A stretch of 19,164 nt of DNA, from contig PKWK01000373.1 in the NCBI GenBank assembly GCA_003133205.1, positions 1 through 19,164 on the forward strand, given 5' to 3'. The notes beneath the pieces are model-generated. The model was not told the origin of the DNA. It was given only the letters and a program-made list of their open reading frames with translations, and ran no database searches. How positions within the stretch are numbered: the stretch's first letter is position 1; each line of letters opens with the position of its first letter. Positions 1-16,846 of the stretch are shown one piece after another. Made by a program: the position numbers and the translations under genes. This DNA is from Granulicella sp. Its GTDB lineage: Bacteria; Acidobacteriota; Terriglobia; Terriglobales; Acidobacteriaceae.

Positions 1-348
1 GAACTCACCATGATCCACGAAGCGATGCTGCTCGAGTATTCGGCGCGCCACCTCGCGCTGGTCGAATGGGCATCGAGCCTCAAGCTCTTCAACTACGCAT
101 GCATCGGCTTCGCCCTCTTCATTCCCTGGGGAATCGCCACCCACGGCGCTGACGGCGGCGCCGCGATGCTCATCTCCATCGCCGCGTTGCTCACCAAACT
201 CATCGTCGCCGGAGCCGCGCTGGCATTGATCGAATCGTTCTCCGCCAAGCTGCGCATCTTCCGCGCGCCCGAGTTTCTGGCGATGGCCTTCCTGCTCGCC
301 GTCCTCGGTCTGCTCGTCCATCTTCTCCTGGGGGTGAGACAAGCATGA
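1..348 (+). CDS. hyfC: HyfC/HycD-like (NuoH-family) membrane subunit, C-terminal part, 5' truncated
   Basis: The reading frame is open to the left edge. It begins with ELTMIHEAMLLEYS, which resembles the conserved ELxMIHE / LEYSG segment of the NuoH-like subunit of group 4 membrane hydrogenases (HyfC, HycD). In that family this subunit anchors the peripheral hydrogenase-like arm to the membrane and lies in the proton/ion path near the electron-transfer module. After this segment come about three hydrophobic stretches and a short polar C-terminus (GVRQA). The first in-frame ATG (base 10) is internal to the conserved segment, so it is not the start; the real start lies outside the window. The stop overlaps the next gene's ATG (ATGA), indicating translational coupling. 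Family assignment rests on motif and operon context. Confidence 0.85.
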   Translation, partial: ELTMIHEAMLLEYSARHLALVEWASSLKLFNYACIGFALFIPWGIATHGADGGAAMLISIAALLTKLIVAGAALALIESFSAKLRIFRAPEFLAMAFLLAVLGLLVHLLLGVRQA

Positions 349-1010
349 ACACCCACGCCTTCACCGTCCCCATCCTCAACCTCCTGGCCGCGTGCCTCCT
401 GCTCATCTCCTTCGCCATGCTCTCGCGCCGCCGCACGCAGCGCCTCATCAACCTGTTCGCGTGGCAGGGCGGAATTCTCTTCCTCTCCACCTGCCTCGTC
501 GCCTACAGCTCTGGGCTGAAAGAGCTCTACTACTCCGCCGCGCTCACCCTGATCCTCAAAGTCATCGGCCTCCCGATGATCCTGCACCGGCTGATCAACC
601 GCCTGGGCGCGCAGTGGGACAGCGAGACCATGGTCAACATTCCCATGACCATGCTCGCCGGCCTGGCGCTGGTCATCTTCGCCTTCGGCCTCGCGCAACC
701 CATCAGCATGATGGCGACTACCATCACGCGCAACACGCTCGGCATCGCGCTCGCCGTCATCCTGCTCTCGTTCCTGATGATGATCACGCGCCGCAAAGCC
801 GTCACCCAGGTCATCGGATTCCTCGCCATGGAGAACGGCCTCTTCTTCGCGGCCACCAGCGCGACCTACGGAATGCCCATGGTCATTGAACTCGGCATCG
901 CGCTCGACGTGCTGGTCGGCGTCTTCATCCTCGGCCTGTTCTTCTTCCAGATTCGCGAGCAATTCGAAAGTCTCGATCTGCGCAACATGGAAAATCTCAA
1001 GGAGGATTGA
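345..1010 (+). CDS. hyfE: HyfE-like membrane subunit (NuoK-related) of hydrogenase-4-type complex
   Basis: The 221-residue, almost wholly hydrophobic protein has about six or seven membrane segments and a polar C-terminus (ENLKED). Length and segments such as GFLAMENGLFFAA and IELGIALDVLVGVFILG are typical of HyfE, a fusion-like relative of the small complex I subunit NuoK. The glutamate in AMENG corresponds to a charged membrane residue expected in proton-translocating NuoK relatives. The subunit would sit between the HyfC anchor and the HyfF antiporter-like subunit. The start ATG overlaps the hyfC stop, and a GGGGGTGAGA stretch upstream can act as ribosome binding site. An AAGGAGGA near the 3' end serves the next gene. 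Confidence 0.9.
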   Translation: MNTHAFTVPILNLLAACLLLISFAMLSRRRTQRLINLFAWQGGILFLSTCLVAYSSGLKELYYSAALTLILKVIGLPMILHRLINRLGAQWDSETMVNIPMTMLAGLALVIFAFGLAQPISMMATTITRNTLGIALAVILLSFLMMITRRKAVTQVIGFLAMENGLFFAATSATYGMPMVIELGIALDVLVGVFILGLFFFQIREQFESLDLRNMENLKED

Positions 1011-1011
1011 A

Positions 1012-2463
1012 TTGGAATTACTCGCAGTACTCGGCCTGCCCCTCCTCGGATTTCTGTTGCTCGCGCTGTTCGGGGCAAAGCGCGCCGCGCCGGAGTTGAA
1101 CGTCGCTATCAGCTTCGCGACCCTCGTCGCCGCCGCGCTGCTGGTCCTGCGCGTGGAACGGCACGGCCCTATCCTGGTCTGGCACGATCAATTCTTCGTC
1201 GACGCCTTCAACGTATTCCTCGTCGGACTCACCGCCTTCGTCGGCTTCACCACCGCACTCTTCTCCCGCCCCTACATGCGCATCGAGGAGCTCCACGGCC
1301 GCCTGACTCCGAAGCGCCTGCGCCTCTATCACGCGATGTACCAACTCTTCATGGCCGCCATGCTGCTCGCGCTGCTCACCAACAACATGGGCCTGCTCTG
1401 GGTCGCGATGGAAGCTGCCACGCTCTCCACCGTGCTGCTCGTCTCGCTCTATCGCACCCGCGCCAGCCTCGAAGCCGCATGGAAGTACTTCATCCTCTGC
1501 GGCGTCGGCATCGCGCAAGCCCTCTTCGGCACCATCCTCTTGTACTTTGCCGCGGAAAAAACGCTGGGCCGCGAAGGCATGACCGCTCTCCTATGGACCC
1601 ACCTCAACGCCGTGAAGGGTCAACTCGAGCCGCGCGTCCTCGGCCTCGCCTTCGTCTTTCTCCTCGTCGGATACGGCACCAAGGTCGGTCTCGCGCCGCT
1701 ACATAACTGGCTGCCCGATGCTCACGCCGAGGGCCCCACGCCAGTCTCCGCGGTCCTCTCCGGCCTGCTGCTGAACGTCGCTCTCTACGCCGTGATTCGC
1801 TGCAAGGTGCTGGTCGAAGGCTCGATCGGCTACATGCTTCCCAGCCGCATGCTGATGGGCTTCGGCCTGCTCTCCGCCGTACTCGCCGCGTTCTTCCTCT
1901 GGCGCCAGCGCGACATAAAACGCCTCTTCGGATACTCCTCCATTGAGCACATGGGCATCATCACCTTCGCCTTCGGACTCGGCGGTCCGGTCGCCAACTT
2001 TGCGGCGCTGCTGCACATGACCGTGCATTCCCTCACAAAATCCTCCATCTTCTTCACCGCGGGGCACGCCTCGCAGAAGGCCGGCACGCAGCAAATGGAC
2101 GGCATCCGCGGCCTGCTCGGCACCAGCCCGACCATCGGCTGGGGACTCATGCTCGGCTCCCTCGCGATCCTCGGCATGCCGCCCTTCGGCGTCTTCGCCA
2201 GCGAATTCCTCATCCTCACCACCGCCATGCGCGAACATCCCTGGACCACTCCATTCCTCCTGATCGCGCTCGGCGTCGCATTCGCCGCCATCTTCAGCCG
2301 CGTGCAGCCGATGGTCTTCGGCGATAGCGACGCTCAGCCCCTGCCGCACTCTCCAGCACTGGTGCCCGTCTTCGTGCATCTAGCGATGGTGCTCATGCTC
2401 GGCGTCTACATGCCCCCCGCCCTCGCCGACTGGTACCGCGCCGCCGCAAGGCTGATCGGATGA
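1012..2463 (+). CDS. hyfF: HyfF-like Na+/H+ antiporter-type (NuoL/M/N family) membrane subunit
   Basis: The protein is about 483 residues with 12 or more membrane segments and belongs to the proton-conducting membrane transporter family shared by complex I (NuoL/M/N), Mrp antiporters and group 4 hydrogenases. Family marks include HDQFFVDAFN near the N-terminus, a membrane glutamate in WVAMEAATLST, the lysine in GYGTKVGLAPLHNWLPDAHA, GPTPVSAVLSG, and FGYSSIEHMGI. These Lys/Glu residues line the ion channel in relatives. I chose TTG at 1012 as start because GGAGG at 1001-1005 lies at correct spacing and the protein then opens directly with a hydrophobic segment (ELLAVLGLPLLGF). An in-frame ATG at 886 would only translate hyfE out of frame. 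The gene is one base from the hyfE stop. Confidence 0.9.
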   Translation: MELLAVLGLPLLGFLLLALFGAKRAAPELNVAISFATLVAAALLVLRVERHGPILVWHDQFFVDAFNVFLVGLTAFVGFTTALFSRPYMRIEELHGRLTPKRLRLYHAMYQLFMAAMLLALLTNNMGLLWVAMEAATLSTVLLVSLYRTRASLEAAWKYFILCGVGIAQALFGTILLYFAAEKTLGREGMTALLWTHLNAVKGQLEPRVLGLAFVFLLVGYGTKVGLAPLHNWLPDAHAEGPTPVSAVLSGLLLNVALYAVIRCKVLVEGSIGYMLPSRMLMGFGLLSAVLAAFFLWRQRDIKRLFGYSSIEHMGIITFAFGLGGPVANFAALLHMTVHSLTKSSIFFTAGHASQKAGTQQMDGIRGLLGTSPTIGWGLMLGSLAILGMPPFGVFASEFLILTTAMREHPWTTPFLLIALGVAFAAIFSRVQPMVFGDSDAQPLPHSPALVPVFVHLAMVLMLGVYMPPALADWYRAAARLIG

Positions 2464-2470: not shown

Positions 2471-4045
2471 ATGACTGAATCCCTCAAATCGCTACCAATC
2501 GCGCTTCCCGCGAACATCGCCTGCAGCCATGCGAGTCTCGGCGCTGTGCACTGGCAGCGTGCCATGGCAGAATTAAGAACCACCGGCGCAACCTTCCTCA
2601 CACTCTGGGGTGCGGATGACTGTGACCAGAACGGTTGCTTTTCAATCCACGCAGCGTTCCTGACGCCTGCAGGCGTGGAGGTGTTGAGCCACGACATCGA
2701 GAACGTTACAAATCCCACCTACCCGAGCATCGCCCATCTTTTTCCTGCCGCCGCCCGCATGGAACGCGCCACCCGCGACCTCCTCGGCATCGTGAGCACC
2801 GCTCCCGAACAGCAACCCGACCAGCGCGGCTGGCTCCGCCACAACGCCTGGCCCGCCAACGTCTACCCCCTCCGCCGCGACACCCCCGAACCTCGAACCC
2901 CGAACCTCGAACCCAGCACTCCTTACCCCTTCGTCCAGGTAGAAGGCGATGGCGTTCATGAGATCGCCGTCGGCCCGGTCCACGCGGGCATCATCGAGCC
3001 CGGACACTTCCGCTTCTCCGTCGTAGGCGAAAAAGTCCTGCGCCTCGAAGAGCGTCTCGGCTACACCCACAAAGGCATCGCCAAGCTCTTCGAAACGCTG
3101 CCACAGAAAGAGGGCCACCGCCTCGCCGCGCGCGTCTCCGGAGATTCCGCCGTCGCCTTTTCCTGGGCCTACTGCGCCGCGCTCGAAGCCATCACTGCAA
3201 CCGCCGTCCCTGGTCGCGCGGCTAACCTCCGCGCCCTCGCCCTCGAACACGAGCGCCTCGCGAATCATCTTGGCGACCTCGGCGCGCTCGGCAACGATGC
3301 GGGCTTCGCCTTCGGGCTGACCCAATTCTCGCGCCTGAAGGAAGACCTCCTCCGCGCCAACATCGAAGCCTTTGGAGCACGCTACCTTTTCGATTACATT
3401 CTCCCCGGCGGAGTCGCCGCCGACCTTCCTCAACCGGCCTACGCTCATCTCGTGCACCTCTATCGCACGCTGGAGTACGAAGTCGCAGGCCTGCAATCCA
3501 TCTACGACGAACACGGAGGCCTGCAGGACCGTTTCCGTGAAGCCGGCCTGCTTAGCCACGACCTCGCGCACAGCCTCGGCGCCATCGGCCTCGTCGCGCG
3601 CGCCTCCGGCATCGCCAACGACCTCCGCGCCGACCACCCATGGGCGCCCTACGACAAGCTGGTAACACAAATAGTTGCAGAGACCGGGGGCGACGTTGCG
3701 GCGCGCGTGCTGCTGCGCTTCCACGAGATCTTCGAGTCGCTCCGCCTCTGCCGAGCGCTGCTGGCCGACCTCTCCCACACCTCAGTCGAAGCAGGGCCGA
3801 TCGCGACCGTCATCCCAGTCGCCGAACCCAACCGCCTCGGCATTGGAGTTATCGAAGGCTGGCGCGGCCCCGTAATGATCGCCCTCGAAACCGGCCCCAA
3901 TGGTTCCATCCGCCGCTGCCACGCGCACGATCCATCCTGGCAGAACTGGCCGTTGATCGAATACGCCATCCTCGGCAACATCGTTCCCGACTTTCCGCTC
4001 ATCAACAAATCGTTCAACCTGTCCTACAGCGGACAGGACGGCTGA
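2471..4045 (+). CDS. hyfG: HyfG-like large subunit (NuoC-NuoD fusion) lacking the [NiFe]-binding cysteines
   Basis: The protein has 524 residues: a NuoC/30-kDa-like domain (about 1-135), a short linker, and a NuoD/hydrogenase-large-subunit-like domain (about 150-524). Typical segments are GPVHAGIIEPGHFRFSV, LEERLGYTHKG and HERLANHLGDLGAL. The first nickel motif of true hydrogenases, RxCGxC, here reads RVSGDS (Arg221, Ser223, Ser226). The second, DPCxxC near the C-terminus, reads NLSYSG (Ser518, Gly521). All four metal cysteines are thus absent and no [NiFe] centre is expected; this matches Ehr (energy-converting hydrogenase related) complexes and, in this respect, complex I. The C-terminus ends shortly after the second motif with no evident protease-cleaved tail. 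Linker residues about 139-149 (EPRTPNLEP) are encoded by repeat family R3. Start at ATG 2471, 7 bases after hyfF. Confidence 0.88.
   Translation: MTESLKSLPIALPANIACSHASLGAVHWQRAMAELRTTGATFLTLWGADDCDQNGCFSIHAAFLTPAGVEVLSHDIENVTNPTYPSIAHLFPAAARMERATRDLLGIVSTAPEQQPDQRGWLRHNAWPANVYPLRRDTPEPRTPNLEPSTPYPFVQVEGDGVHEIAVGPVHAGIIEPGHFRFSVVGEKVLRLEERLGYTHKGIAKLFETLPQKEGHRLAARVSGDSAVAFSWAYCAALEAITATAVPGRAANLRALALEHERLANHLGDLGALGNDAGFAFGLTQFSRLKEDLLRANIEAFGARYLFDYILPGGVAADLPQPAYAHLVHLYRTLEYEVAGLQSIYDEHGGLQDRFREAGLLSHDLAHSLGAIGLVARASGIANDLRADHPWAPYDKLVTQIVAETGGDVAARVLLRFHEIFESLRLCRALLADLSHTSVEAGPIATVIPVAEPNRLGIGVIEGWRGPVMIALETGPNGSIRRCHAHDPSWQNWPLIEYAILGNIVPDFPLINKSFNLSYSGQDG
2887..2915. repeat. R3 microrepeat copy inside hyfG
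   Basis: Tandem CGAACCTCGAACC units are translated in-frame as EPRTPNLEP in the linker between the NuoC-like and NuoD-like domains. Related copies are at 13421, 15724 and 18745. Confidence 0.7.
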
Positions 4046-4053: not shown

Positions 4054-4560
4054 ATGATCAACACACTATCGCGCATGATCCGCACCGGAATCCTCACCGA
4101 GCCCCTCCCGCCGACGGTCGAAGGCCCTCCCTCAGTCGAAGCCCTGCAGCACGATCTGTGGAAGATCCTCGGCCGCGCCCTCTGCATTCGCCACGTCGAT
4201 GCGGGCTCCTGCAACGGCTGCGAGCTTGAGATTCACGCGCTCAACAACCCGTACTACAACCTCGAAGGGGCTGGCATCAAATTCGTCGCCAGCCCACGCC
4301 ACGCCGACCTGCTGCTGGTCACCGGCCCGGTCTCCGTCAACATGGAGGAAGCGCTGCGCCGCACCTACGACGCCATCCCCAACCCCAAACTCGTCATCGC
4401 CATCGGCGACTGCGGAGCATGTGGCGGAGTCTTCGGGCAGAGCTACGCCAGCCGCGGCGGCGTCGCCAGCGTCATCCCCGTAGACCACACCGTCCCAGGC
4501 TGCCCGCCAACGCCCACGGCAATCCTGGCCGGCATCCTGCAAGCCCTCGCCGCCCGCTGA
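4054..4560 (+). CDS. hyfI: HyfI-like small subunit (NuoB family), Fe-S electron-transfer protein
   Basis: The 168-residue protein is the NuoB/HycG/HyfI-type small subunit that carries the proximal [4Fe-4S] cluster (N2 in complex I). Ligand cysteines are visible: CNGCE at Cys53 and Cys56, IGDCGACGG at Cys120 and Cys123, and PGCPPTP at Cys150. Four of these fit the CxxC-x(n)-C-x(n)-C pattern of hydrogenase small subunits. Electron-transfer function therefore seems intact although the partner large subunit has no NiFe cysteines. I chose ATG 4054 because GAGG lies about 7 bases upstream and it is 8 bases after the hyfG stop; a longer in-frame opening from 3640 only reads hyfG out of frame. It is the last gene of the operon visible here. 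Confidence 0.9.
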   Translation: MINTLSRMIRTGILTEPLPPTVEGPPSVEALQHDLWKILGRALCIRHVDAGSCNGCELEIHALNNPYYNLEGAGIKFVASPRHADLLLVTGPVSVNMEEALRRTYDAIPNPKLVIAIGDCGACGGVFGQSYASRGGVASVIPVDHTVPGCPPTPTAILAGILQALAAR

Positions 4561-4720: not shown

Positions 4721-5203
4721 TCACGCTCCCGGAAGGTAGTTGCGCCACTCATCCGATTCGGCAATGCGCTTCAGCAGTTGAAATCTTCGCCGCATCAGGT
4801 TACGGATGTGCGGGATCATGATGTATTTCCCGACAAGCCGGCCGGCCAATCCCAGCGGCAGCGAGAAGCGCACGGTGTCCTTCAACAGAACCTGCCCGCC
4901 GATCTCCGTAAACTCGTGGTCGTGCTGGAACGATTTGAAGCGTCCAGCGACCATGACGTCCCGGAAAAACCGGTTGGGCTCGAAGACGGAGATGAACGAG
5001 ACGTGGCGCTGCGGCACACCGAGCTGCCAACCCTTCCAGCAGATATAGTCTCCGCCAACCACCAGGCCGGAGGTTCGCTCGCCGCGGGTTCCGGCAACGG
5101 GATGCACCTTCAACTCCCGCTCCACGATCGCAAGGCTCGTCGAGAGCAGGAAGCAGCGCTCGATCGGGGCAATGACGTGGATGCTGTCCTTGACGACGAA
5201 CAT
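4721..5203 (-). CDS. SRPBCC / START-like ligand-binding domain protein
   Basis: The 160-residue protein has the layout of the SRPBCC (polyketide cyclase/dehydrase, START-like) fold. It opens with a beta strand followed by the common PIERCF turn (DSIHVIAPIERCFLLSTS), has central strands ending in SFQHDHEFTEIGGQVLLKDTVRFSLP, and a long C-terminal helix after IPHIRN. Members bind hydrophobic ligands or act as cell-division-inhibitor-like proteins; no specific ligand can be read from the sequence. There is no signal peptide, so it is probably cytosolic. The start ATG at 5203 is the only sensible one; no strong ribosome binding site is seen. It lies about 110 bases downstream of thrS on the same strand and could be cotranscribed. 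Confidence 0.8.
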   Translation of the reverse strand: MFVVKDSIHVIAPIERCFLLSTSLAIVERELKVHPVAGTRGERTSGLVVGGDYICWKGWQLGVPQRHVSFISVFEPNRFFRDVMVAGRFKSFQHDHEFTEIGGQVLLKDTVRFSLPLGLAGRLVGKYIMIPHIRNLMRRRFQLLKRIAESDEWRNYLPGA

Positions 5204-5311: not shown

Positions 5312-7375
5312 CTATAGCTCAGTCGTCCGAGTGCTGTTGAGGCTCGTGGCGCGCGCAACGAATTCATCCAGCGCCGCGCTGCCCTGGTCGCCCTTGCCCC
5401 GCGTCCGCACGCTCACGCTGTTCGTCGTGGATTCCTTATCGCCAAGGATCAAAATGAACGGAACCTTCTGCAATCCGAAGTCACGAATCTTCGCGTTCAT
5501 CTTTTCATTCCGCGCATCGAGTTCCACACGCAAACCCGCAGCCTCAAGCGTCGCCTTCACCTGCTCCGCATACGCAAGATGCTTCTCACTCGAGATCGGC
5601 ACCAGCCCAACCTGCACCGGCGCAAGCCACAGCGGAAAGGCCCCCGCGTAGTGCTCGATCAGCACGCCGAAGAATCGCTCCACGCTCCCAAATAAAGCGC
5701 GATGCACCATCACCGGCCTGTGCAACTCGCCGTCCTCTCCCTTGTACTCCAGCTCGAAGCGAGCGGGCAGGTTGAAGTCGAACTGCACCGTCGAGAGCTG
5801 CCACATGCGGCCCAGCACGTCGACCAGCTTGATGTCGATCTTCGGCCCATAAAACGCCGCCTCGCCCGGAATCACGCGGTACGCAATCTCGCGCCGCGAC
5901 AGCGCATGCTTCAGCGAGTCGGTCGCCTGGTTCCAATGCTCGGCCGAGCCCGTGTAGTCCTTCGGCTTGGTGGCGTCCCACGTCGATAGCTCGACCTTGA
6001 ACTCCTTGAAGCCGAATGTCTCCAGCACACTCTTCGCGAAGTCGATGCACGCGACCACCTCGTCCTCGATCTGGCCCGGCGTGCAGAAGATATGCGCGTC
6101 GTCCTGCGTAAAGCCGCGCACCCGCAGCAGCCCATGCATCGTGCCCGATCGTTCGTAACGATAAACGTTACCTAACTCCGCATACCGTAGCGGCAGGTCG
6201 CGATAGCTGCGCGGATTGCTCTTGTAGATAAGAATATGTCCCGGACAGTTCATCGGCTTCAGCCTGTACTCGGCGTCGTCCAGCTCCATCGGCGGATACA
6301 TATTCTCGTTGTAGTAACCCTCGTGCCCGCTGATCTTCCACAGCTCGCGGCGCATGATGTGCGGTGTGAACACAAGATCGTAACCGCGACGGACACATTC
6401 CTCGCGCATCCAGTCTTCCATCGTCTTGCGGATAAGCCCGCCCTTGGGATGCCAGAAGATCAGGCCCGCCCCCGCGACCTCCTGGATCGAAAACAGATCG
6501 AGCTGCTTGCCCAGCACTCTGTGGTCGCGCGCCTTGATCTCTTCCAGCCGCTTGAAGTGCGCGTCCAGATCCTTCGTGTTGAAAAACGCCGTCCCGTAGA
6601 TCCGCTGCAGTTGCTGATTCTTCTCGTCGCCCAGCCAGTACGCGCCCGCAATCGAAGTGATCTTGTACGCCTTCACCCGCCCCGTCGAAGGAATGTGCGG
6701 CCCGCGACAGAAGTCCGTGAAGCCCCCATTCTTGTACAGCGAAATCTCCTCGCCGGGCTTCGTGAACTTCTCGATGAAGTGGACCTTCATGAAGTCGCCC
6801 TGCGCGGCATACTCCTTCAGCCCAACCTCGCGCGGCTCTTCCACGCGCACAAACTTCTCATCGCGCGCCACCACCTCGGCCATGCGCGCCTCGATCGCAG
6901 CCAGGTCCGCCTCCGTAAACGGCGTCTCGCGATACACGTCGTAGAAAAATCCGTTGTCCGTCGCCGGCCCATGCCCCAGCTTGGTCTCGGGAAAGAGTTC
7001 CAGGATCGCCGTCGCCATCACGTGCGCGGCCGAGTGGCGCAGCACCTTCAGCGCCGCCTCATCCGCCTCCTTCAACAGCCACAGCTCGACGTCTTCTTCG
7101 AGCGGCGCCGCCAGGTCCACCAACCGCGTGCCGTCTTCGCTCGCGCCCGCCGCGCCATACATCGCGTCTTCCGACGACACATCGGCTGCCCCATTCGTGA
7201 CCGTCCCACCGTCACGGGTGGGGTCCGCACTCGTCAACGGACGAACGCGCGCCACCACAACCACGGCAGCGAGCCGGGGCGAGATGCTGTTAGCAATATC
7301 GAAAGGAGTAGTCCCGCGCGCGACTTCGCGCTGGGACCCATCAGGAAGCTGGACTCGAATCTGCTCTGTACTCAC
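5312..7375 (-). CDS. thrS: threonyl-tRNA synthetase with an insertion in the TGS domain
   Basis: The 687-residue protein charges tRNA-Thr. Domains in order: TGS (about 5-95), editing domain (HSAAHVMATAILELFP and the downstream Cys/His residues), class II catalytic core with motif MNCPGH, and C-terminal anticodon-binding domain (from about LAPVQVGLVPIS). The zinc ligands are visible at Cys377 (MNCPGH), His428 (TQDDAHIF) and His558 (MVHRALFGS). The length exceeds E. coli ThrS (642) by 45, and the first two zinc ligands are shifted by 43, so the extra residues lie near the N-terminus. They map to about residues 45-84 between VVVARV and RLVDLAAP, where an R1 repeat is encoded. The start is GTG at 7375. 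The nearest purine stretch (TAAGG) is close to the start, so initiation may not rely on a standard Shine-Dalgarno. Confidence 0.96.
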   Translation of the reverse strand: MSTEQIRVQLPDGSQREVARGTTPFDIANSISPRLAAVVVVARVRPLTSADPTRDGGTVTNGAADVSSEDAMYGAAGASEDGTRLVDLAAPLEEDVELWLLKEADEAALKVLRHSAAHVMATAILELFPETKLGHGPATDNGFFYDVYRETPFTEADLAAIEARMAEVVARDEKFVRVEEPREVGLKEYAAQGDFMKVHFIEKFTKPGEEISLYKNGGFTDFCRGPHIPSTGRVKAYKITSIAGAYWLGDEKNQQLQRIYGTAFFNTKDLDAHFKRLEEIKARDHRVLGKQLDLFSIQEVAGAGLIFWHPKGGLIRKTMEDWMREECVRRGYDLVFTPHIMRRELWKISGHEGYYNENMYPPMELDDAEYRLKPMNCPGHILIYKSNPRSYRDLPLRYAELGNVYRYERSGTMHGLLRVRGFTQDDAHIFCTPGQIEDEVVACIDFAKSVLETFGFKEFKVELSTWDATKPKDYTGSAEHWNQATDSLKHALSRREIAYRVIPGEAAFYGPKIDIKLVDVLGRMWQLSTVQFDFNLPARFELEYKGEDGELHRPVMVHRALFGSVERFFGVLIEHYAGAFPLWLAPVQVGLVPISSEKHLAYAEQVKATLEAAGLRVELDARNEKMNAKIRDFGLQKVPFILILGDKESTTNSVSVRTRGKGDQGSAALDEFVARATSLNSTRTTEL
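7184..7226. repeat. R1 palindromic repeat copy inside thrS
   Basis: The + strand starts GGCTGCCCCATTC and ends CGGGTGGGGTCC, the same boundaries as the copy inside folC (12741-12787). An internal CCCACC/GGGTGG pairing forms a hairpin. On the minus strand it encodes about residues 50-64 of ThrS, within a segment absent from typical ThrS TGS domains. Confidence 0.65.
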
Positions 7376-7444
7376 GCCTTACAGAATACCGCCTCCGCGC
7401 AGCAACCGAAGGCTCGCCGACTCGCTGCCCCGCTCTGGAAGGAG

Positions 7445-7493
7445 GCGAAGAGAAGCGGGCGCGCCGGCTAGGCTTACTCCCGCTTCTCTTCGC
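7445..7493. repeat. 15-bp perfect inverted repeat upstream of thrS
   Basis: GCGAAGAGAAGCGGG (7445-7459) and CCCGCTTCTCTTCGC (7479-7493) are exact inverse complements around a 19-base loop. It sits between the small-peptide gene (stop at 7508) and thrS (start at 7375), all on the minus strand. It can fold as a strong RNA stem in the thrS leader or as a terminator of the upstream gene; no T-tract is visible on either side, so a leader structure or attenuation role is equally possible. Confidence 0.6.
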
Positions 7494-7507
7494 AATTCGA
7501 GAGCGAT

Positions 7508-7648
7508 CTATACAGTCAGGTTCTGCTCAGACGTGGCCGTCTTCCGCAGCACCATGCCATTGGCTTTAGCCCACGCATGTCCCCGCCAGATGCCGATAAG
7601 AGGGCCACCCGCAACTACAACAAACGCATAGATCATCGCACATTGCAT
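7508..7648 (-). CDS. small single-pass membrane protein, unknown function (46 aa)
   Basis: A short reading frame begins at ATG 7648 with AAAGGAG about 8 bases upstream, one of the clearest ribosome binding sites in the window. The peptide MQCAMIYAFVVVAGGPLIG begins with a hydrophobic stretch long enough to span the membrane or act as a signal anchor, followed by a basic, polar tail (WRGHAWAKANGMVLRKTATSEQNLTV). I do not recognise a family. A longer in-frame opening to 7759 exists, but its upstream part reads as non-coding. It lies 132 bases upstream of thrS and is separated from it by the 15-bp inverted repeat. The ribosome binding site and membrane-like composition argue that it is real; conservation is unknown. 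Confidence 0.55.
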   Translation of the reverse strand: MQCAMIYAFVVVAGGPLIGIWRGHAWAKANGMVLRKTATSEQNLTV

Positions 7649-7956
7649 AGCAATTTCTCCTTTGTTGTGACCTCGGCAGCTTGGGGGATGCCGAGTCGGA
7701 ACGGCGAGTGACACCAAGGCTTGTGGGCCTGCACCCATTCTTCCGGGTACTCCATTCACTATCGACCGGCAGTGCCTTTCTCCCCAATCCCACCTTCGCT
7801 CTCAGCCCGAACTTTCGCGGTACGGCAGTCCCACGTTGGTGTTAGGCCCGTCTCGTCGCCCCCGCGCCGTCGTTCTGGATAGGCCAGAATCTCCGTATCT
7901 GCCGTGCTTAACGCCACGGATTTAGAAACCTGCAGAAATATCCGGTCTTAAGATAG
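7649..7956. other. gene-poor stretch upstream of the small peptide gene
   Basis: About 300 bases without a convincing gene. It should hold the promoter of the minus-strand small-peptide gene, but no clear -35/-10 pair stands out. Two overlapping short minus-strand frames are open here, without a ribosome binding site or a recognisable protein. The right end runs into R2 palindromes. Confidence 0.4.
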
Positions 7957-8016
7957 GCCGGGACTTCAGTCCCGGCACAACGAGCCCCCACCCCCATGAG
8001 CTTTAGCCCCCGGGAC
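7957..8016. repeat. R2 palindromic repeats upstream of ICMT-like gene
   Basis: GCCGGGACTTCAGTCCCGGC (7957-7976) is a perfect palindrome with a TC centre, followed by GAGCTTTAGCCCCCGGG. The same GGCTTTAGCC-type core recurs in other intergenic regions of the window. Because an in-frame ATG at 7996 falls inside this element, I placed the start of the following gene at 8041. Confidence 0.55.
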
Positions 8017-8040
8017 ACCCTCGGACATACAATCATCCCC

Positions 8041-8601
8041 ATGCTCCAGACCATCGCCGTCGTGGAACTCATCCTGTGCTGGATCGCCTGGGCCCTGGCA
8101 TTTGTGAACGCCCGCAAACAGGCAGCCGGCCAGAAAAAGGTGGTCCGAGCCCCCGCCTCGTGGTGGGGCATCGCACTCGTGGCCGTAGGCTTCTTCCTTG
8201 TCATGGTCAACGTCCGGCCCTTGGGATTCCAGAAATCTACGCTGTCCTTGATCGCCTCCATGCTGCTCGCCCCGCCTTCGGTCGCGCTCGCGTGGGCGGC
8301 CACGCGCCATCTCGGCAAGCAATGGCGCTACGAAGCCGCGCTCACCGAGGATCACGACCTCATCCAAACCGGCCCCTACCGCCTGGTCCGCCACCCCATC
8401 TACGCCTCCATGTTGGGAATGCTGCTGGCGGCCGGAACCTGCCTCACCTGGTGGCCGATGTTTCTCGCCGGCGTGGCCTTCTTCCTCACCGGCACCGAAA
8501 TCCGCATCCACGCCGAGGAACGCCTCCTCGCCCAACGCTTCCAAACCACCTACGCCGCCTACCGCACCCGCGTCCCCGCCTACATCCCATTCCTCCGCTG
8601 A
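8041..8601 (+). CDS. isoprenylcysteine carboxyl methyltransferase (ICMT)-family membrane protein
   Basis: The 186-residue protein has four or five membrane segments and the C-terminal marks of the ICMT/PEMT-like methyltransferase family: a GPYRLVRHPIYASMLGML segment, then a hydrophobic hairpin, then EERLLAQRFQTTYAAYRTRVPAYIPFLR. In this family the RHPxY and EExxL/F...Y...VPxxIP regions bind S-adenosylmethionine at the membrane face. Bacterial members methylate varied and mostly unknown substrates; the name is by fold, not proven reaction. ATG 8041 is preferred to 7996 because the earlier one lies in an R2 repeat and the hydrophobic N-terminus begins at MLQTIAVVELIL. It appears to be transcribed alone. 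A second member of the family lies at 18004. Confidence 0.82.
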   Translation: MLQTIAVVELILCWIAWALAFVNARKQAAGQKKVVRAPASWWGIALVAVGFFLVMVNVRPLGFQKSTLSLIASMLLAPPSVALAWAATRHLGKQWRYEAALTEDHDLIQTGPYRLVRHPIYASMLGMLLAAGTCLTWWPMFLAGVAFFLTGTEIRIHAEERLLAQRFQTTYAAYRTRVPAYIPFLR

Positions 8602-8847
8602 CCGCGCCGCGAGCTAGCCATATCTATTAGATGGAGCCAGCAATTGCCAGGGATGTGGCACAGGCCAAACATCGAGACACCGTCAAAGCGCTGTAGTCTT
8701 TAGGAACTAGAGGATGTTGGAGACGCTTCGGACTGAATGCGGTTCTTAGCGGCTATCGCAGCGACAAAACTCAACACAAAACACCAAGGGGCTGGAGCTA
8801 TCAGGCGGAGCATGATCAGATTGGTAACGCTCAAGACTTCGCGGCTA
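8602..8847. other. gap with lower GC; possible tiny minus-strand frame
   Basis: The stretch is visibly less GC-rich than the flanks. The only candidate seen is a 37-codon minus-strand frame (ATG at 8813, stop at 8700-8702) encoding a hydrophobic start (MLRLIAPAPWCFVLSFVAA) and a serine-rich tail. It has no Shine-Dalgarno and is not claimed as a gene. No RNA gene or repeat is seen. Confidence 0.3.
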
Positions 8848-9279
8848 TTATGTAAGCCACCAGCGAAACGCAACGATGAAACTATCTACGCCTAGAGCAA
8901 GCAACAGGATCGCAGTAATTGAAAGCAGTATTACCGCCCGCCTCGGTCTCTTTATCCTCGTGACAAGATGGCGCCTATCAAGATAGATTCCTACGACCCA
9001 CCACCAGGAAATCGCGGCAGGAAGAAGCGCAAAATACTGTCTTGGCACTAAGAGATCCAGCAGTCTTGAAATGGGACGACCGATGATGTAGGCAGGGGAA
9101 TTGAGAACTGAAAACAGCATATCTGGTGTCTGATATGGCCACAGCGGCGCGCCTGAGTCCCACGCCATTCCCATCAACATGATGATGCGTTGATTGTGAA
9201 TGTCCCACACCATGAGCGCCGCGCTCAGAGACCCCATAACGATTGGAAGTAGAACTTTGTACGTTCGCCATATCCTCAT
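8848..9279 (-). CDS. hypothetical small membrane protein
   Basis: The 143-residue frame begins MRIWRTYKVLLPIVMGS with a basic N-terminus and a hydrophobic segment. Further hydrophobic stretches follow around YFALLPAAISWWWVVGIYL and RAVILLSITAILLLALGV, with a short C-terminal tail (RWWLT). Basic residues between segments (DRRHLVTRIKRPRR) give a plausible inside-positive topology with three or four passes. I do not recognise a family. The DNA is clearly lower in GC than the neighbours (29 of 60 bases in the line starting 8881), which suggests a gene acquired separately. No good ribosome binding site precedes ATG 9279. A competing minus-strand frame over the same bases lacks any coherent protein character. 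Confidence 0.6.
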   Translation of the reverse strand: MRIWRTYKVLLPIVMGSLSAALMVWDIHNQRIIMLMGMAWDSGAPLWPYQTPDMLFSVLNSPAYIIGRPISRLLDLLVPRQYFALLPAAISWWWVVGIYLDRRHLVTRIKRPRRAVILLSITAILLLALGVDSFIVAFRWWLT

Positions 9280-9419
9280 GATCTAGTGCCAGCCGCGCGT
9301 CGGATTATGAGCCGATCCAACGATACGCCCTCCAGTGTGGAGGAACGGGAACTGCCCCAAATACGGGTTACCGGTAACTTCCTCGGTTCTAAATCTCCGC
9401 GCACCAGGTTCCGTCCGAA

Positions 9420-11054
9420 TCACGACTCTCCCCGCACCTCACGCTGAAACGTACTGTTCCGCTCCGACTCCCGCACCACCGCCCGCCGCCGTCCCACCAG
9501 CAACTCCTGCGCGCTAATGCTCCCGCAGATCCGCCCCGTCTCGCGATCGATCACCGGCATGCTCATCACCCGAGTCGTCGCCATCTCCTCAGCGACCGCC
9601 CGGCAGGTCTCATCCGTATACGCGAACACCTCGGGCAGCTCCTCATCCACACCGCCGATCGCCTCTCCCGCCGCCACCTCGGTCATCACCTCCGCCACGC
9701 CCACCATCTCCAGCGGATCCACACCATACTCGCGCGACAGGTGATATCCGCGACGGCTCAGCTTCTCCGTCAGAATCGATCGCGGCATCACCAGCGACGT
9801 CACCAGGTAGGACGCCGTACACGCCAGCGCCAGCGGCAGCAGCGCGGGCAGCGCATGGGTCAACTCCAGCGAGAAAAGAATCGCCGTCAGCGGCACGCCC
9901 AGCGAGCCCGACAGCATCGCGCCCATCCCCATCAGCGCCCACACCGCCTGCGTCTCGCCCGGCATGTGCGCCACCCGAGCCGCCGTCTCCCCGATGGCCG
10001 CGCCAATCATCAGCAACGGCGCCAGCACGCCGCCCGACGTTCCCGAACTCAGCGAGAACGCCCACATCAGCGACTTCGCCACCAGCAATCCAAGCAGCAG
10101 ACCCAGCGGCGCATTCCCGCGCAGCAACTCGGCAATATTGTCGTACCCCACGCCGAGCCCGCGCGGAAAGAAAATCCCACCCACTCCGATTCCGATCCCG
10201 CCAATCGCCGGCCACCACATCCAGTGCACACGCAGCCGGCCGCAAAAATGTTCAAACGCGTCCTCGAATCCGTACATCATGCGACTCAGCCCAGCCGCCG
10301 CGAAGCCCACCAGAATCCCCAACGGTCCCGCCACCAGCATCATCGGCCACAAGTTAATCGCGCCGTGCAGTTCCACCGGAAAGATCGGCCCCGCCCCCAG
10401 CCAACTGATGCGCAACGCGCCCGCCGCGACGCTGGCCACCGCCACCGGGATCAGCGAGCGCGGCCGCCACTCGAACAGCAGCAACTCCACCGCCAGCAGA
10501 ATCGCCGCCATCGGAGCGGCAAATGTCGCCGACATACCCGCCGCCGCGCCCGCCACCAGCAGCGTGGTCCGTTCCGCATCGGTCAGCTTCAGCCACTGCG
10601 CCACCAGCGAGCCGAACGCTCCGCCGGTCATGATGATCGGTCCCTCCGCCCCAAACGGCCCACCCGAGCCAATCGCGATCGCCGCCGAAAGTGGCTTCAA
10701 GATCGCGACCAGTGGATCGACGCGCGCGCCGCGCAGCAGGATCGCCTCAATCGCCTCGGGAATTCCGTGCCCGCGAATCTTGTCCGATCCATAGTGCGCG
10801 ATGAACCCCACCAGCAGCCCGCCAACCACCGGCACCAGCGGCATGATCCACGGCGAAAGCGGCGACCCGGCAGGCCCAACCATCGCCAGGCTCAGCCGAT
10901 GGTAGTAGAAGAGGTTGGTCATGAACGCAATCGCACGCAGCAGCGCCACCGCCAACCCGGCCGCGCCCACACCGATCAGCAGCGCCACCCCGGTCAGCAG
11001 CCATACCCTTCGATTTACCGTGAAGTCGCGCAAAGCTGACGGCTTGGCCCTCAT
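9420..11054 (-). CDS. ClC-family chloride channel/transporter with C-terminal CBS region
   Basis: The 544-residue protein has the ClC membrane domain (about 15-430) and a C-terminal cytoplasmic region with CBS-like sequence (VAEVMTEV...TRVMSMPVIDRETGRICGSISAQELL). Signature loops are visible: GHGIPEA (GSGIP in E. coli ClC-ec1), GAEGP with the gating glutamate Glu137, and SGGVLAP (GxFxP loop). The anion-coordinating serine of GSGIP is His96 here. In FAAPMAAILLAVELLLFE the first of the paired E202/E203 glutamates is kept, while the position of the internal proton glutamate (E203) seems to be Leu. Selectivity and channel versus exchanger mode are therefore uncertain. The start ATG overlaps the marR stop (ATGA), so the two form one operon. 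Confidence 0.92.
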   Translation of the reverse strand: MRAKPSALRDFTVNRRVWLLTGVALLIGVGAAGLAVALLRAIAFMTNLFYYHRLSLAMVGPAGSPLSPWIMPLVPVVGGLLVGFIAHYGSDKIRGHGIPEAIEAILLRGARVDPLVAILKPLSAAIAIGSGGPFGAEGPIIMTGGAFGSLVAQWLKLTDAERTTLLVAGAAAGMSATFAAPMAAILLAVELLLFEWRPRSLIPVAVASVAAGALRISWLGAGPIFPVELHGAINLWPMMLVAGPLGILVGFAAAGLSRMMYGFEDAFEHFCGRLRVHWMWWPAIGGIGIGVGGIFFPRGLGVGYDNIAELLRGNAPLGLLLGLLVAKSLMWAFSLSSGTSGGVLAPLLMIGAAIGETAARVAHMPGETQAVWALMGMGAMLSGSLGVPLTAILFSLELTHALPALLPLALACTASYLVTSLVMPRSILTEKLSRRGYHLSREYGVDPLEMVGVAEVMTEVAAGEAIGGVDEELPEVFAYTDETCRAVAEEMATTRVMSMPVIDRETGRICGSISAQELLVGRRRAVVRESERNSTFQREVRGES

Positions 11055-11506
11055 TCCCCGCCCACTCCCGCACCGTCGCGCGCATGCGTGCGGATGCGCC
11101 GCAAAGCCTTTGCCAGTCGCGGCGCCAGCTCATTCAACTCCCGCGCATGATTGTCTGCAAGCCTGCGCAGCACCCGCTCACCCTTGGGCGTCACTCGCAA
11201 AATAGCCCGCCGCCGATCGACCGGATCAGCGGTTCGAACCAGCAGCCCTTCGCGCTCCGATCGGTTCACTAACTCAACCACGCTGTGATGCCGCAGACTC
11301 AGTCGCTGCGCAGCATACGCGATCGTCACCGTCTCGCCCTCCGGCGCGCCCGCCACCTGCAACAGGAGCTGGTGCTGCTGCGGCTGCAATCCCGCCTCCG
11401 TCGCCGCGCATTCGCTGAAGTGAAGAAACTGGCGCAGCTCATAACGAAACTCAGCTAAAGTCCTAAGTAGCAAATGGGATTCCGATGGCTTCGATCGAGC
11501 ACTCAT
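11051..11506 (-). CDS. MarR-family transcriptional regulator, probable autoregulator of the ClC operon
   Basis: The 151-residue protein has a MarR winged helix: recognition region around TIAYAAQRLSLRHHSVVELVNRSEREGLLVR, wing with DPVDRRRAILRVTPKGERVL, and flanking dimerisation helices. The DxRR wing motif is typical of the family. I chose ATG 11506 rather than TTG 11536 because the earlier start lies inside a perfect 25-bp palindrome that looks like an operator, and the protein from MSARSK has normal MarR length. No Shine-Dalgarno precedes this ATG. A TACGAT -10 ends 6 bases before it, so the mRNA may be leaderless. Its stop overlaps the clc start, so it probably controls its own expression and that of the ClC gene. 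The inducer is unknown. Confidence 0.88.
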   Translation of the reverse strand: MSARSKPSESHLLLRTLAEFRYELRQFLHFSECAATEAGLQPQQHQLLLQVAGAPEGETVTIAYAAQRLSLRHHSVVELVNRSEREGLLVRTADPVDRRRAILRVTPKGERVLRRLADNHARELNELAPRLAKALRRIRTHARDGAGVGGE

Positions 11507-11531
11507 ATTTATATCGTAATACGATATAAAT
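11507..11531. promoter_or_regulatory. perfect 25-bp palindrome abutting the marR start codon: probable MarR operator
   Basis: Arms ATTTATATCGTA and TACGATATAAAT are exact inverse complements around a single central A. This AT-rich site stands out in GC-rich DNA and touches the marR ATG. MarR dimers typically bind such palindromes over their own promoter. Confidence 0.8.
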
Positions 11532-11543
11532 CCCAAAGCAAGC
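11515..11543 (-). promoter_or_regulatory. candidate marR-clc promoter overlapping the operator
   Basis: On the minus strand TTGCTT, a 17-base spacer and TACGAT form a weak -35/-10 pair. The -10 lies within the palindrome and ends 6 bases before the ATG at 11506, which would place the transcription start at or next to the A of ATG (leaderless mRNA). Bound MarR would block it. Confidence 0.4.
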
Positions 11544-11571
11544 CGACAGACTTCAAGTTCCCATACAAGCT

Positions 11572-11610
11572 GGGTGGCCCATCCTTTCCGGCTTCATCGG
11601 AAAGGGTGGG
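11572..11610. repeat. R1 palindromic repeat copy, intergenic
   Basis: It starts GGGTGGCCCATCC and ends GGAAAGGGTGGG; TTTCC and GGAAA form the inner stem around GGCTTCATC. Its ends resemble the R1 copies in thrS and folC. Confidence 0.55.
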
Positions 11611-11638
11611 TTATCGCGCTATGCGCGACCGCCTTTTT

Positions 11639-11682
11639 GTTTCCCATTCCACAGCGCCCCCCTTCGTTTCCCATTCCATAGC
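11639..11682. repeat. two direct repeats of a 17-mer, 27-base period
   Basis: GTTTCCCATTCCACAGC (11639-11655) and GTTTCCCATTCCATAGC (11666-11682) differ at one position. Possible regulator half-sites or a small duplication; no further units are seen. Confidence 0.45.
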
Positions 11683-11753
11683 CCAGCGAAGGAATCTGCT
11701 TTCGCCTTGGCACTTGCTTTTGCCTCTGCAACCAAGTAAGCCAAGGCTGGTAG

Positions 11754-11824
11754 CCCGAGGCTTTAGCCTCAGGTCTCCTTGGCCCTCTCGCGCCCCGAAG
11801 ATGAAAGGGGGTTTTAACCCCTGG
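11754..11824. repeat. two R2 palindromes upstream of folC
   Basis: CCCGAGGCTTTAGCCTCAGG (11754-11773) and AGGGGGTTTTAACCCCTGG (11806-11824) share the central TTTAR palindromic core with flanking GC arms, as in the other R2 copies. Confidence 0.5.
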
Positions 11825-11883
11825 AGTATGCCCTCTTCCGTCCGCCCGTCCCCGTCCACCCCCCGGCAATCTAAAATAGCCTC

Positions 11884-13392: not shown

Positions 13393-14204
13393 CCTCGATG
13401 CCACCCGCAACCAACACTTTCGAACCTCGGACCTCGAACCTCGAACCTCCGCACCACCCCATTCCAGCCCACCTCCGCTACCTCACCAAGTTCGTCTGCA
13501 TTCCGCTGATGGCGATCGCCACCGCCTTCTTCGGCTGCATCTCCCTCCTCTGCGGCCTTTGGGACAGCTCCGGTCGCCAACAGCACTTTGTCGCGGGCCT
13601 CTGGGCCAGAACCATGCTGCGCCTCGCATTCTCCCCCGTCCGCATCGTCGGAGCGGAGAAGCTGCGGCCCTCCGAAGTCGCCGTATATGCCTCAAACCAT
13701 TTGAGTTACATGGACACACCAGTCCTCTTCGCCAAGCTCCCGTTCCAGTTCCGCATCCTCGCAAAGCTGGGGCTTTGGAAGGTCCCGTTTGTCGGCTGGT
13801 ACCTCAAACGCTCGGGCCAGGTGCCGATCGACTCGCGCAGCTCCCGCTCGGCCGTCGCCGGTCTGTTGCGCGGGGTCGCGGTGCTCAAGGCTGGAACGCC
13901 GCTCGTCCTGTTCCCGGAAGGCAAGCGAAGCCCGGACGGCCACATGCAGGTCGCTGCCTCCGGCTGCGCCTTCATGGCCATCCGTGCCGGCGTTCCGCTC
14001 ATCCCTCTGGCCCTCATCGGCACCTATGAACTCCTGCCAATTCATGTATATAGCCTCCGCCCGCGACCCCTGATGATCATCGTCGGCGACCCCATTTCCA
14101 CCGAAGGCCTCACCACCAAGGACGCCGACGCCCTCACCGCCCGCCTCTACGACGAGATCGGCAAGATGTACTATCAATACTCAGATTTCTCGCCAATTGC
14201 TTAG
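13389..14204 (+). CDS. plsC: lysophospholipid acyltransferase (PlsC family)
   Basis: The 271-residue protein is a 1-acyl-sn-glycerol-3-phosphate acyltransferase-type enzyme, acting in phospholipid synthesis at the inner membrane. It has the catalytic HX4D motif NHLSYMD (His104, Asp109), the substrate-binding FPEGKRS motif (from Phe175; FPEGTRS in most), and the VPLIPLALIGTYELLP block. A hydrophobic anchor lies at about residues 35-58 (FVCIPLMAIATAFFGCISLL). The start ATG overlaps the folC stop (ATGA), indicating coupling. Residues about 10-20 (TFEPRTSNLEP) come from repeat R3, so the extreme N-terminus is repeat-derived. An alternative start after the repeat is not apparent, as no ATG is available before the membrane anchor. 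Exact acyl acceptor is not determinable. Confidence 0.9.
   Translation: MTSMPPATNTFEPRTSNLEPPHHPIPAHLRYLTKFVCIPLMAIATAFFGCISLLCGLWDSSGRQQHFVAGLWARTMLRLAFSPVRIVGAEKLRPSEVAVYASNHLSYMDTPVLFAKLPFQFRILAKLGLWKVPFVGWYLKRSGQVPIDSRSSRSAVAGLLRGVAVLKAGTPLVLFPEGKRSPDGHMQVAASGCAFMAIRAGVPLIPLALIGTYELLPIHVYSLRPRPLMIIVGDPISTEGLTTKDADALTARLYDEIGKMYYQYSDFSPIA
13421..13449. repeat. R3 microrepeat copy at the plsC N-terminus
   Basis: It holds three near-identical units of CGAACCTCGGAC/CGAACCT type. It is translated in-frame, giving FEPRTSNLEP, very close to the EPRTPNLEP peptide encoded by the copy in hyfG. Confidence 0.7.
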
Positions 14205-14233
14205 CTCCACTGACCACTTACCACTTCTCCTTT

Positions 14234-15010: not shown

Positions 15011-15020
15011 GCATAATGGC

Positions 15021-15057
15021 TTGTCATTCTTGAGCGAAGCGAAGACCCCGCATTTTG
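15021..15057. repeat. R4 repeat copy between the amidotransferase gene and rsmG
   Basis: TTGTCATTCTTGAGCGAAGC followed by GAAGACCCCGCATTTTG. It shares ends and core with the copy inside folC, which carries 13 extra bases. It fills most of the gap before rsmG. Confidence 0.6.
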
Positions 15058-15074
15058 TTCTGCCTTAGAGGCCC

Positions 15075-15692: not shown

Positions 15693-15705
15693 CGGCGTTC
15701 CCGAA

Positions 15706-15721
15706 TGTTCCACGTGGAACA
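15706..15721. promoter_or_regulatory. parS: parS site 1 (ParB-binding centromere)
   Basis: TGTTCCACGTGGAACA is a perfect 16-bp palindrome and matches the bacterial chromosomal parS consensus TGTTNCACGTGAAACA except for one symmetric G for A. It lies 14 bases after rsmG and close to parA-parB, where parS sites are expected. Confidence 0.9.
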
Positions 15722-15723
15722 AT

Positions 15724-15754
15724 CCTCGAACCTCGAACCCAGTACCTCGAACCT
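15724..15754. repeat. R3 microrepeat copy between the two parS sites
   Basis: CCTCGAACCTCGAACCC followed by AGTACCTCGAACC fills nearly all the sequence between the two parS palindromes. It shares GAACCYAGTACCT with the copy at 18745. Confidence 0.65.
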
Positions 15755-15780: not shown

Positions 15781-15807
15781 CTCTTTTTGTCGCCCAGCAC
15801 ACAGAAG

Positions 15808-15952: not shown

Positions 15953-16846
<894 letters not shown>

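What the first reader, a model, noticed from the sequence alone, without database searches (positions are those of the whole stretch)
2471..4045. Hydrogenase-like complex whose large subunit has lost every NiFe cysteine
Seen: HyfG reads RVSGDS where hydrogenases have RxCGxC, and NLSYSG where they have DPCxxC, so all four Ni/Fe ligands are gone, while HyfI keeps Cys53, Cys56, Cys120 and Cys150 and HyfF keeps its ion-path Lys/Glu residues. Known: such Ehr complexes exist alongside group 4 hydrogenases and complex I and have no established substrate. Inference: a conserved electron-transferring, ion-pumping membrane complex with a new redox partner or quinone-like site in place of H2. The two motifs are cleanly substituted by Ser/Gly in an otherwise full-length protein, which argues for selection rather than decay.
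Basis: partly seen in the sequence, partly recalled or inferred. Interest (0 to 1): 0.8.

Follow-up and report, generated by a model that had tools for sequence, protein, structure and literature searches.

The report
Hydrogenase-like complex without its metal site
The DNA encodes most of a membrane complex that looks like a hydrogen-handling enzyme but has lost every residue that would hold the nickel-iron centre; it belongs to a widespread, already named but still unexplained family (Ehr/Hyq) that probably moves electrons and pumps ions with something other than a nickel-iron site.

Summary
The large subunit (2471-4045) aligns with E. coli HycE, and the four Ni/Fe cysteines C241, C244, C531 and C534 are S223, S226, S518 and G521. 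In addition the canopy Asp529 is Asn516, and Pro-Arg-Gly is Trp-Arg-Gly. The proton-relay residues (E176, N265, H266, R377, E419, R465), the small subunit's four cluster cysteines and the ion-path Lys/Glu are kept.

This is not a new kind. It is an Ehr-type complex with the gene order of the Azorhizobium hyqRBCEFGI operon, whose authors already noted that HyqG lacks both CxxC motifs (PMC3357923). The six-gene set B-C-E-F-G-I recurs in 69 of 83 relatives; 13 others are cut by contig ends or broken, and one has hyfB in two pieces. No HyfH-type subunit or HycI-type protease was detected. Of 44 carrier genomes searched, 24 lack HypD and 39 lack nifD, so the published role, recycling nitrogenase H2, is unlikely to be general.

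My best reading is an ion-pumping oxidoreductase with a metal-free, complex-I-like substrate pocket; donor and substrate are unknown. By-catch: in Thermaceae relatives the small subunit has also lost all four cluster cysteines.

The parts
1..348 (+). hyfC (NuoH/HycD-like), 3' part only; the gene begins before the window
   Evidence: Pfam NADHdh E 4.1e-05, 23.5 bits, below the cut-off of 27; matches relatives' hyfC
345..1010 (+). hyfE, hydrogenase-4 membrane subunit
   Evidence: NCBIfam PRK11492 E 3.4e-28, below its cut-off; conserved place in the operon
1012..2463 (+). hyfF, NuoM/N-like ion-pumping subunit; TTG start assumed
   Evidence: NCBIfam hydrogenase 4 subunit F, 860 bits, cut-off 543; Glu/Lys/Glu ion-path residues kept
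2471..4045 (+). hyfG, fused NuoC-NuoD-like large subunit without Ni/Fe ligands
3131..3148 (+). RVSGDS, residues 221-226, in place of RxCGxC
3854..3868 (+). EGWRG, residues 462-466, in place of EAPRG; canopy Arg465 kept
4016..4033 (+). NLSYSG, residues 516-521, in place of DPCxxC; canopy Asp is Asn516
4054..4560 (+). hyfI, small subunit with Cys53, Cys56, Cys120, Cys150; no ferredoxin domain, no hyfH between it and hyfG
   Evidence: Pfam Oxidored_q6 E 7.4e-31

Best explanation
The window holds five of the six genes of a compact Ehr/Hyq-type complex (hyfB-C-E-F-G-I; hyfB and the start of hyfC would lie upstream). It is not a NiFe hydrogenase. Most likely it works as an ion-pumping membrane oxidoreductase. 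An unidentified soluble donor docks on HyfI, where group-4 hydrogenases carry HyfH, and passes electrons through the single [4Fe-4S] cluster into the former NiFe pocket of HyfG. There a small two-electron/two-proton substrate, most simply a quinone bound unlike in complex I, is reduced or oxidised, and the event drives HyfC/E/F/B. Shown: loss of the metal ligands; retention of the cluster cysteines, the proton-relay residues and most of the ion path; the recurring operon; purifying selection. Inferred: electron flow, donor, substrate, direction, and ion pumping itself.
For: Four ligands lost and D529 changed to N516; proton-relay residues named for HycE in PMC9474812 kept: E193/S283/H284/R395/E437/R478 align with E176/N265/H266/R377/E419/R465; N265, H266, R377 and E419 in 85 of 85 compact rows, E176 in 85, R465 in 84. 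New shared D225 (85 of 85) and D487 (84 of 85). HyfI cluster Cys in 79 of 81 compact rows, the other 2 cut at the 3' end. Ion-path residues kept in HyfF and in relatives' HyfB. HypD lacking in 24 of 44 carriers searched, and no association with HypD in 247 acidobacterial genomes: 29 of 54 with a hit against 85 of 193 without, p 0.22. Ehr forms one branch without true NiFe rows, 98/97. Ordered model, pLDDT 91.4, except the 171-173 loop.
Against: No donor, acceptor or redox gene recurs beside the operon. The complex-I quinone ligands are absent: T. thermophilus His38/Tyr87 (names recalled) align with I175/G224. In relatives' HyfC the residues at HycD Y102, E199 and E201 are changed, though a true NiFe operon shares that loop. 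Thermaceae relatives have lost the cluster cysteines too, so part of the family may not transfer electrons at all. Azorhizobium hyq deletions changed H2 output (PMC3357923, sections 6-7), which a non-H2 substrate does not directly explain.
Confidence: 0.5

Rival explanations
1. It is an H2:quinone oxidoreductase without a NiFe site, as proposed for Azorhizobium Hyq: HyfG/HyfI exchange electrons between H2/H+ and quinone at an unknown centre.
For: Same operon layout as hyqRBCEFGI (PMC2650096 passages). Published H2 data: a hyq deletion raised H2 output 15-fold (relative value of Table 2B) at 20 uM O2, and hyq+ strains without exo-hydrogenase made most H2 below 1 uM O2, including a nifK strain (PMC3357923, Table 2).
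Against: No known H2 chemistry at such a pocket; the authors call a NiFe site uncertain, if not unlikely. The nifK hupSL hyq triple mutant is not in the table. Two of the three Cys they found conserved in HyqG (491, 497) appear to align with I511 and L517 in the window; the third (258) I could not place firmly, but the two Rhizobium Cys nearest to it fall on G274 and F286. nifD is in only 5 of 44 carriers searched. In Nitrospira moscoviensis, Ehr expression did not rise with H2 (PMC12342949 passage).
Confidence: 0.1
2. It is a redox-independent ion transporter: the hydrogenase head is kept as a structural or regulatory cap on the HyfB/C/E/F channel.
For: In Thermaceae-type relatives the small subunit lacks all four cluster Cys (0 of 44 rows has any, one row with a gap) and the large subunit lacks the ligands, yet most ion-path residues are kept in Allomeiothermus. 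No electron-input subunit in the compact operon.
Against: In the window's own clade the cluster Cys are present in all 79 complete rows and proton-relay residues are invariant, which a mere cap would not need.
Confidence: 0.2
3. It runs in reverse: proton-motive force drives electrons from quinol up to a low-potential acceptor such as ferredoxin.
For: Same anatomy as the best explanation; carriers include aerobes that need low-potential electrons (inference).
Against: No ferredoxin or ferredoxin-dependent gene recurs beside the operon.
Confidence: 0.12
4. It is a decaying hydrogenase in which the ligands were lost by drift.
For: Ligands lost.
Against: Shared signature across several phyla, pN/pS 0.21-0.30, intact reading frames.
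Confidence: 0.01

Closest known systems
Hyq 'endo-hydrogenase' of Azorhizobium caulinodans (hyqRBCEFGI; PMC2650096, PMC3357923)
   Same: Six structural genes in the same order, no HyfA/D, large subunit without either CxxC motif, small subunit with four cluster Cys. Rhizobium leguminosarum and Azospirillum brasilense, species the authors list as carriers, have the same gene set here (L085, L130; other strains); L085 falls in the window's clade with 100/100 support (L130 is not in the tree).
   Different: Window lacks the Cys that I align with HyqG Cys491/Cys497; acidobacterial relatives have an ArsR-type regulator upstream, whereas the gene before hyfB in R. leguminosarum L085 matches Cro/C1-type HTH; Azorhizobium hyq is NifA-controlled, whereas 39 of 44 carriers searched here lack nifD.
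Ehr (Ech/energy-converting hydrogenase-related) complexes, e.g. Geobacter, Nitrospira, Margulisbacteria (PMC7894505, PMC12342949, PMC6349859)
   Same: Group-4-like complex without Ni/Fe ligands, function unknown.
   Different: The window's clade is a compact version without a ferredoxin subunit; a second acidobacterial Ehr clade has a ferredoxin domain fused to the small subunit.
E. coli formate hydrogenlyase HycE and hydrogenase-4 HyfG
   Different: Four Ni/Fe Cys and Asp529 lost; HyfA, HyfH, HyfJ and HycI equivalents not found in 83 relatives; no separate HyfD.
Respiratory complex I NuoCD/NuoB/NuoH
   Same: Fold, N2-type cluster site, proton relay.
   Different: No NADH module, no NuoI, quinone-ligating His/Tyr absent.
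Mycobacterial Rv0081-Rv0087 locus (PMC6901956, PMC6177252)
   Same: Smt/ArsR regulator before an operon of hyc-type genes; order resembles I-B-C-E-F-G of L127/L128.
   Different: Not compared by sequence here; a lead only.

Membership tests
Group 4 [NiFe]-hydrogenase | RxCGxC and DPCxxC Ni/Fe ligands | tested here: not met
   S223, S226, S518, G521
Group 4 [NiFe]-hydrogenase | NiFe maturation genes available in carriers | tested here: not met
   HypD in 20 of 44 carriers searched (44 of the 80 loci's genomes); draft genomes may be incomplete, but 7 of 11 records titled as strains lack it too. The window's own genome is not held
Ehr complex | group-4-like large subunit lacking Ni/Fe ligands, with antiporter-like subunits | tested here: met
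   definition from PMC6349859 and PMC10284858 passages
Ehr complex | groups with a named reference Ehr protein in a tree | not tested
   No Geobacter or Nitrospira EhrL sequence was identified by name here; the clade was defined by motif
Hyq endo-hydrogenase | operon R-B-C-E-F-G-I | tested here: inconclusive
   C-E-F-G-I in the window, B-C-E-F-G-I in 69 of 83 relatives; hyfB and the regulator of the window were not seen, and the regulator family differs between relatives
Hyq endo-hydrogenase | large subunit lacks both CxxC motifs | tested here: met
   PMC3357923 passage
Hyq endo-hydrogenase | three conserved Cys (258, 491, 497) | tested here: not met
   491 and 497 align with I511 and L517, placed through the R. 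leguminosarum row and the C-terminus; 258 not placed firmly
Hyq endo-hydrogenase | H2 uptake or evolution | not testable with these tools
   needs biochemistry
Hyq endo-hydrogenase | link to nitrogen fixation | tested here: inconclusive
   nifD in 5 of 44 relatives' genomes; the window's genome is not held
Respiratory complex I | quinone-ligating His and Tyr of NuoD | tested here: not met
   I175 and G224 in alignment with 2fug_4; residue names recalled
Respiratory complex I | NuoI and NADH module in the operon | tested here: not met
   no NuoE, NuoF, HyfA or HyfH match at E 1e-5 in the stretches of 83 relatives; in-operon ferredoxin-motif hits are low-complexity only

The most novel reading that the evidence does not exclude
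The compact Ehr/Hyq complex makes or consumes H2 at a pocket with no NiFe site, as the Azorhizobium deletion data would imply; that would be an H2-active enzyme outside the known [NiFe], [FeFe] and [Fe] classes.
Probability: 0.06. Interest if true: 0.95.

Novelty: new member of a known kind. Interest (0 to 1): 0.42.

Why it matters
Ehr-type complexes are common in soil and water bacteria yet have no agreed substrate, and databases label them hydrogenase, formate hydrogenlyase or NADH dehydrogenase. The comparison narrows the question. The metal site and one canopy acid went, the proton relay and most of the ion path stayed, and many carriers seem unable to make a NiFe site. A published H2 activity for the same operon type can therefore be tested directly. 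The Thermaceae relatives, which lost the FeS ligands as well, ask whether such a machine can work without electrons.

Tried and rejected
Decay: rejected by shared signatures and pN/pS. Displaced NiFe ligands: rejected for the window, only C235 and C483 conserved across the clade. HyfC THLE loop as an Ehr hallmark: rejected, a true NiFe operon (L114) has it too. Recurrent partner gene: none; a spermidine-synthase-like gene lies near the operon in 13 loci, 8 of them Burkholderiaceae, too uneven to use. The neighbour clustering is crude (stop-to-stop frames, no gene caller). First AF2 model (A2, 35 rows) was poor at 147-190, 194-200 and 506-524; the deeper alignment (A3, 62 rows) fixed most of this. 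No coordinates are given by the tool, so pocket distances were not measured. Foldseek and VIA rows show only the known fold. Papers with no use: PMC9381531, PMC13284343. The founding Ehr review (recalled) and the Rv0081-Rv0088 paper are not held. A six-term search aimed at Thermus HyfI without cysteines listed nothing.

Rows dropped: one search left out 5 hits spanning under 330 model positions (L090, two L106 pieces, L087, one L102 piece). The 85 compact rows include the second copy in L058, the truncated L050 and the broken L033. Of the 54 acidobacterial genomes with a hit, I looked at motifs for only those with loci, so some of the 54 are classed by score alone. HypD, nifD and PF00374 were sought in 44 of the 80 loci's genomes, chosen by me.

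Full report
What is there. The first 4.6 kb of the window carry hyfC (3' part), hyfE, hyfF, hyfG and hyfI in one direction, tightly packed. No whole genome is held for the window. The nearest listed protein (99%) comes from an unnamed JGI contig of 3 kb, and in the tree the window pairs with a Granulicella assembly, L002, 100/100, so the source is most likely an acidobacterium.

Observation. HyfG aligns with E. coli HycE (7z0s_E, E 4.9e-63). HycE C241, C244, C531 and C534 fall on S223, S226, S518 and G521. Two further changes were not in the finding: Asp529, which PMC9474812 (passages) calls strictly conserved in hydrogenases and complex I, is Asn516, and the Pro before the canopy Arg is Trp464. 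Proton-relay residues named there for HycE are kept: E193 as E176, S283 as N265 (Ser, Asp or Asn is usual there), H284 as H266, R395 as R377, E437 as E419, R478 as R465. D192 is I175. The quinone ligands of complex I are not there either (their names are recalled).

Is it more than chance? Of 121 rows (window plus the 120 listed of 8000 scored homologues), none has all four Cys and 2 have one. Among 85 rows of the window's clade, 75 have none and 10 keep only the first Cys; R221, G224, D225 and E176 are in 85, R465 and D487 in 84, W464 in 83, N516 in 82. Purifying selection: pN/pS 0.205, 0.298, 0.269, 0.265 against L001, L002, L003, L042.

The operon. E. coli hyf has A to J. Of 83 relatives (L001-L080, L083-L085), 69 show B-C-E-F-G-I, one (L055) has B in two pieces, and 13 are cut by contig ends or broken. 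No frame in these 83 stretches matched E. coli HyfA, H, J, HycI, NuoE or NuoF at E 1e-5. The ferredoxin-motif scan found only low-complexity matches inside these operons. Annotated examples. In acidobacterial rows with flank an ArsR-type gene lies about 104-352 bp before hyfB (27 of 27); in the other rows with flank, none of 40 (Pfam check on one such gene, L042).

Need for NiFe maturation. I searched 44 of the 80 loci's genomes: HypD occurs in 20 and a NiFe large subunit (PF00374, E 1e-20) in 16. Of 11 records titled as strains (L041-L043, L056, L059-L061, L063, L064, L068, L071), 7 lack HypD. In 247 acidobacterial genomes, 29 of 54 with a hit to the HyfG model (E 1e-60) and 85 of 193 without have HypD (p 0.22); after taking out four genomes with true group-4 NiFe rows and two with only the RFTGTS type, 25 of 48. 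Not all 54 were inspected for motifs, and many genomes are drafts, so absences are soft.

History. In a tree of 55 rows all 45 Ehr-type rows form one branch (98/97); three acidobacterial NiFe rows (RLCGAC or RICGVC with CYAC or CYSC) sit next to it with weak support (83/53), the RFTGTS rows beyond them, and E. coli HycE and HyfG, L113 and NuoCD on the other side; the root is at the midpoint only. The window's compact clade is 100/100 and spans Acidobacteriota, Pseudomonadota and a Myxococcaceae-labelled assembly.

What is known. The Ehr name and the missing ligands are in print (passages of PMC6349859, PMC7894505, PMC10284858, PMC4378227, PMC12342949); the passages call the role unknown, suspected or hypothetical. 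Closer is Hyq of Azorhizobium: operon hyqRBCEFGI (PMC2650096, abstract and passages), six-subunit core, HyqG without either CxxC but with Cys258/491/497 (PMC3357923, abstract, sections 3, 6, 7, first part of 8, and passages). Table 2 there gives H2 output (pmol per 10^9 cells per min) of 16 (hupSL), 175 (hyq) and 540 (both) at 20 uM O2, and 61,000 (hupSL), 2,600 (hyq), 14,000 (both) and 56,600 (nifK hupSL) below 1 uM O2. PMC2930871 (abstract and outline only) adds nodule data: single mutants evolved no detectable H2, double mutants did. In my alignments two Rhizobium and one Azospirillum protein carry C-NKSFN-C (L085, L130, L131), which I take for HyqG Cys491/497; the window has I-NKSFN-L. C511 is in 26 of 28 other Ehr rows. 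nifD is in 5 of 44 carriers, so H2 from nitrogenase is unlikely to be the general substrate.

Mechanism. HyfI keeps its four cluster Cys in 79 of 81 compact rows, the other two being cut. Ion-path residues are kept in HyfF and in relatives' HyfB; HyfC residues matching HycD R108, E130, E138, E189 and E206 are kept in two acidobacterial relatives, and E206 in the window part, while those matching Y102, E199 and E201 are changed. The AF2 model is confident (91.4) with a loose 171-173 stretch, by alignment in the beta1-beta2 loop that carries the proton donor in FHL. I therefore favour an ion-pumping oxidoreductase with a metal-free pocket. With no HyfH found, the electron donor would have to dock on HyfI directly. 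Donor, substrate and direction are not shown.

By-catch. A search with the Allomeiothermus small subunit listed 120 rows: 44 (P0121-P0164, mostly Thermaceae where named) have no Cys at any of the four cluster positions (one row with a gap). Of the other 76, 46 have all four, 27 none and 3 a part; rows named Gaiellaceae and Acidimicrobiales are among the 27. The 50 nearest large subunits read R-A/V-G-G/S-E in 48 and DLSYAG in 43. Pairing of the two subunits was seen directly only in L086. If they are functional, some Ehr complexes work without either metal site. I did not find this in print, but the only search aimed at it was.

Limits. hyfB and the regulator of the window itself were not seen. 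The clade definition rests on motifs, not on named Ehr references. Mycobacterial kinship is by gene order in papers only (PMC6901956, PMC6177252 passages).

Noticed in passing
L086:11263-12135; proteins P0121-P0164: Small subunits of Ehr-type complexes, mostly Thermaceae where named, lack all four [4Fe-4S] cysteines (CNGC to TGLDD type, GDC to GNE, PGC to PGS/PGD; 0 of 44 rows has any), and the L086 large subunit lacks the Ni/Fe ligands; a possibly redox-free complex.
   Followed up: partly
rows within P0165-P0240: 27 of 76 further rows also have no Cys at the four cluster positions (DEDS type in P0165, P0193, P0225, named Gaiellaceae or Acidimicrobiales).
   Followed up: partly
L110, L111, L112: A separate acidobacterial lineage, gene order C-E-F-G-I-B, whose large subunit reads RFTGTS or RFSGTS and FGLSTAEGDR: a NiFe-less branch placed outside Ehr in the tree.
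   Followed up: partly
L103-L107, L109, L115-L125: Second acidobacterial Ehr clade whose small subunit carries a ferredoxin-type motif ahead of the NuoB-like part.
   Followed up: partly
acidobacterial rows among L001-L050, upstream of hyfB: ArsR-type regulator gene before the operon in 27 of 27 acidobacterial rows with flank, also near L086 and L128.
   Followed up: partly
L005, L024, L056, L059, L061-L063, L068-L071, L083, L084: Spermidine-synthase-like gene close to the operon in 13 loci.
   Followed up: no
L058:9968-11521 and 16974-19433: Two hyf-type operons on one contig; the second large subunit reads RVSGDS and NGSYSG.
   Followed up: no
window 4721-5203 (-): ORF without a Pfam match downstream of hyfI; a similar ORF, judged by eye, lies downstream in L002.
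   Followed up: no
window 5312-17814: Ordinary chromosomal genes: threonyl-tRNA synthetase, ICMT-type methyltransferase, CLC channel, MarR regulator, Mur-ligase family, acyltransferase, peptidase C26, gidB, parA, parB.
   Followed up: no
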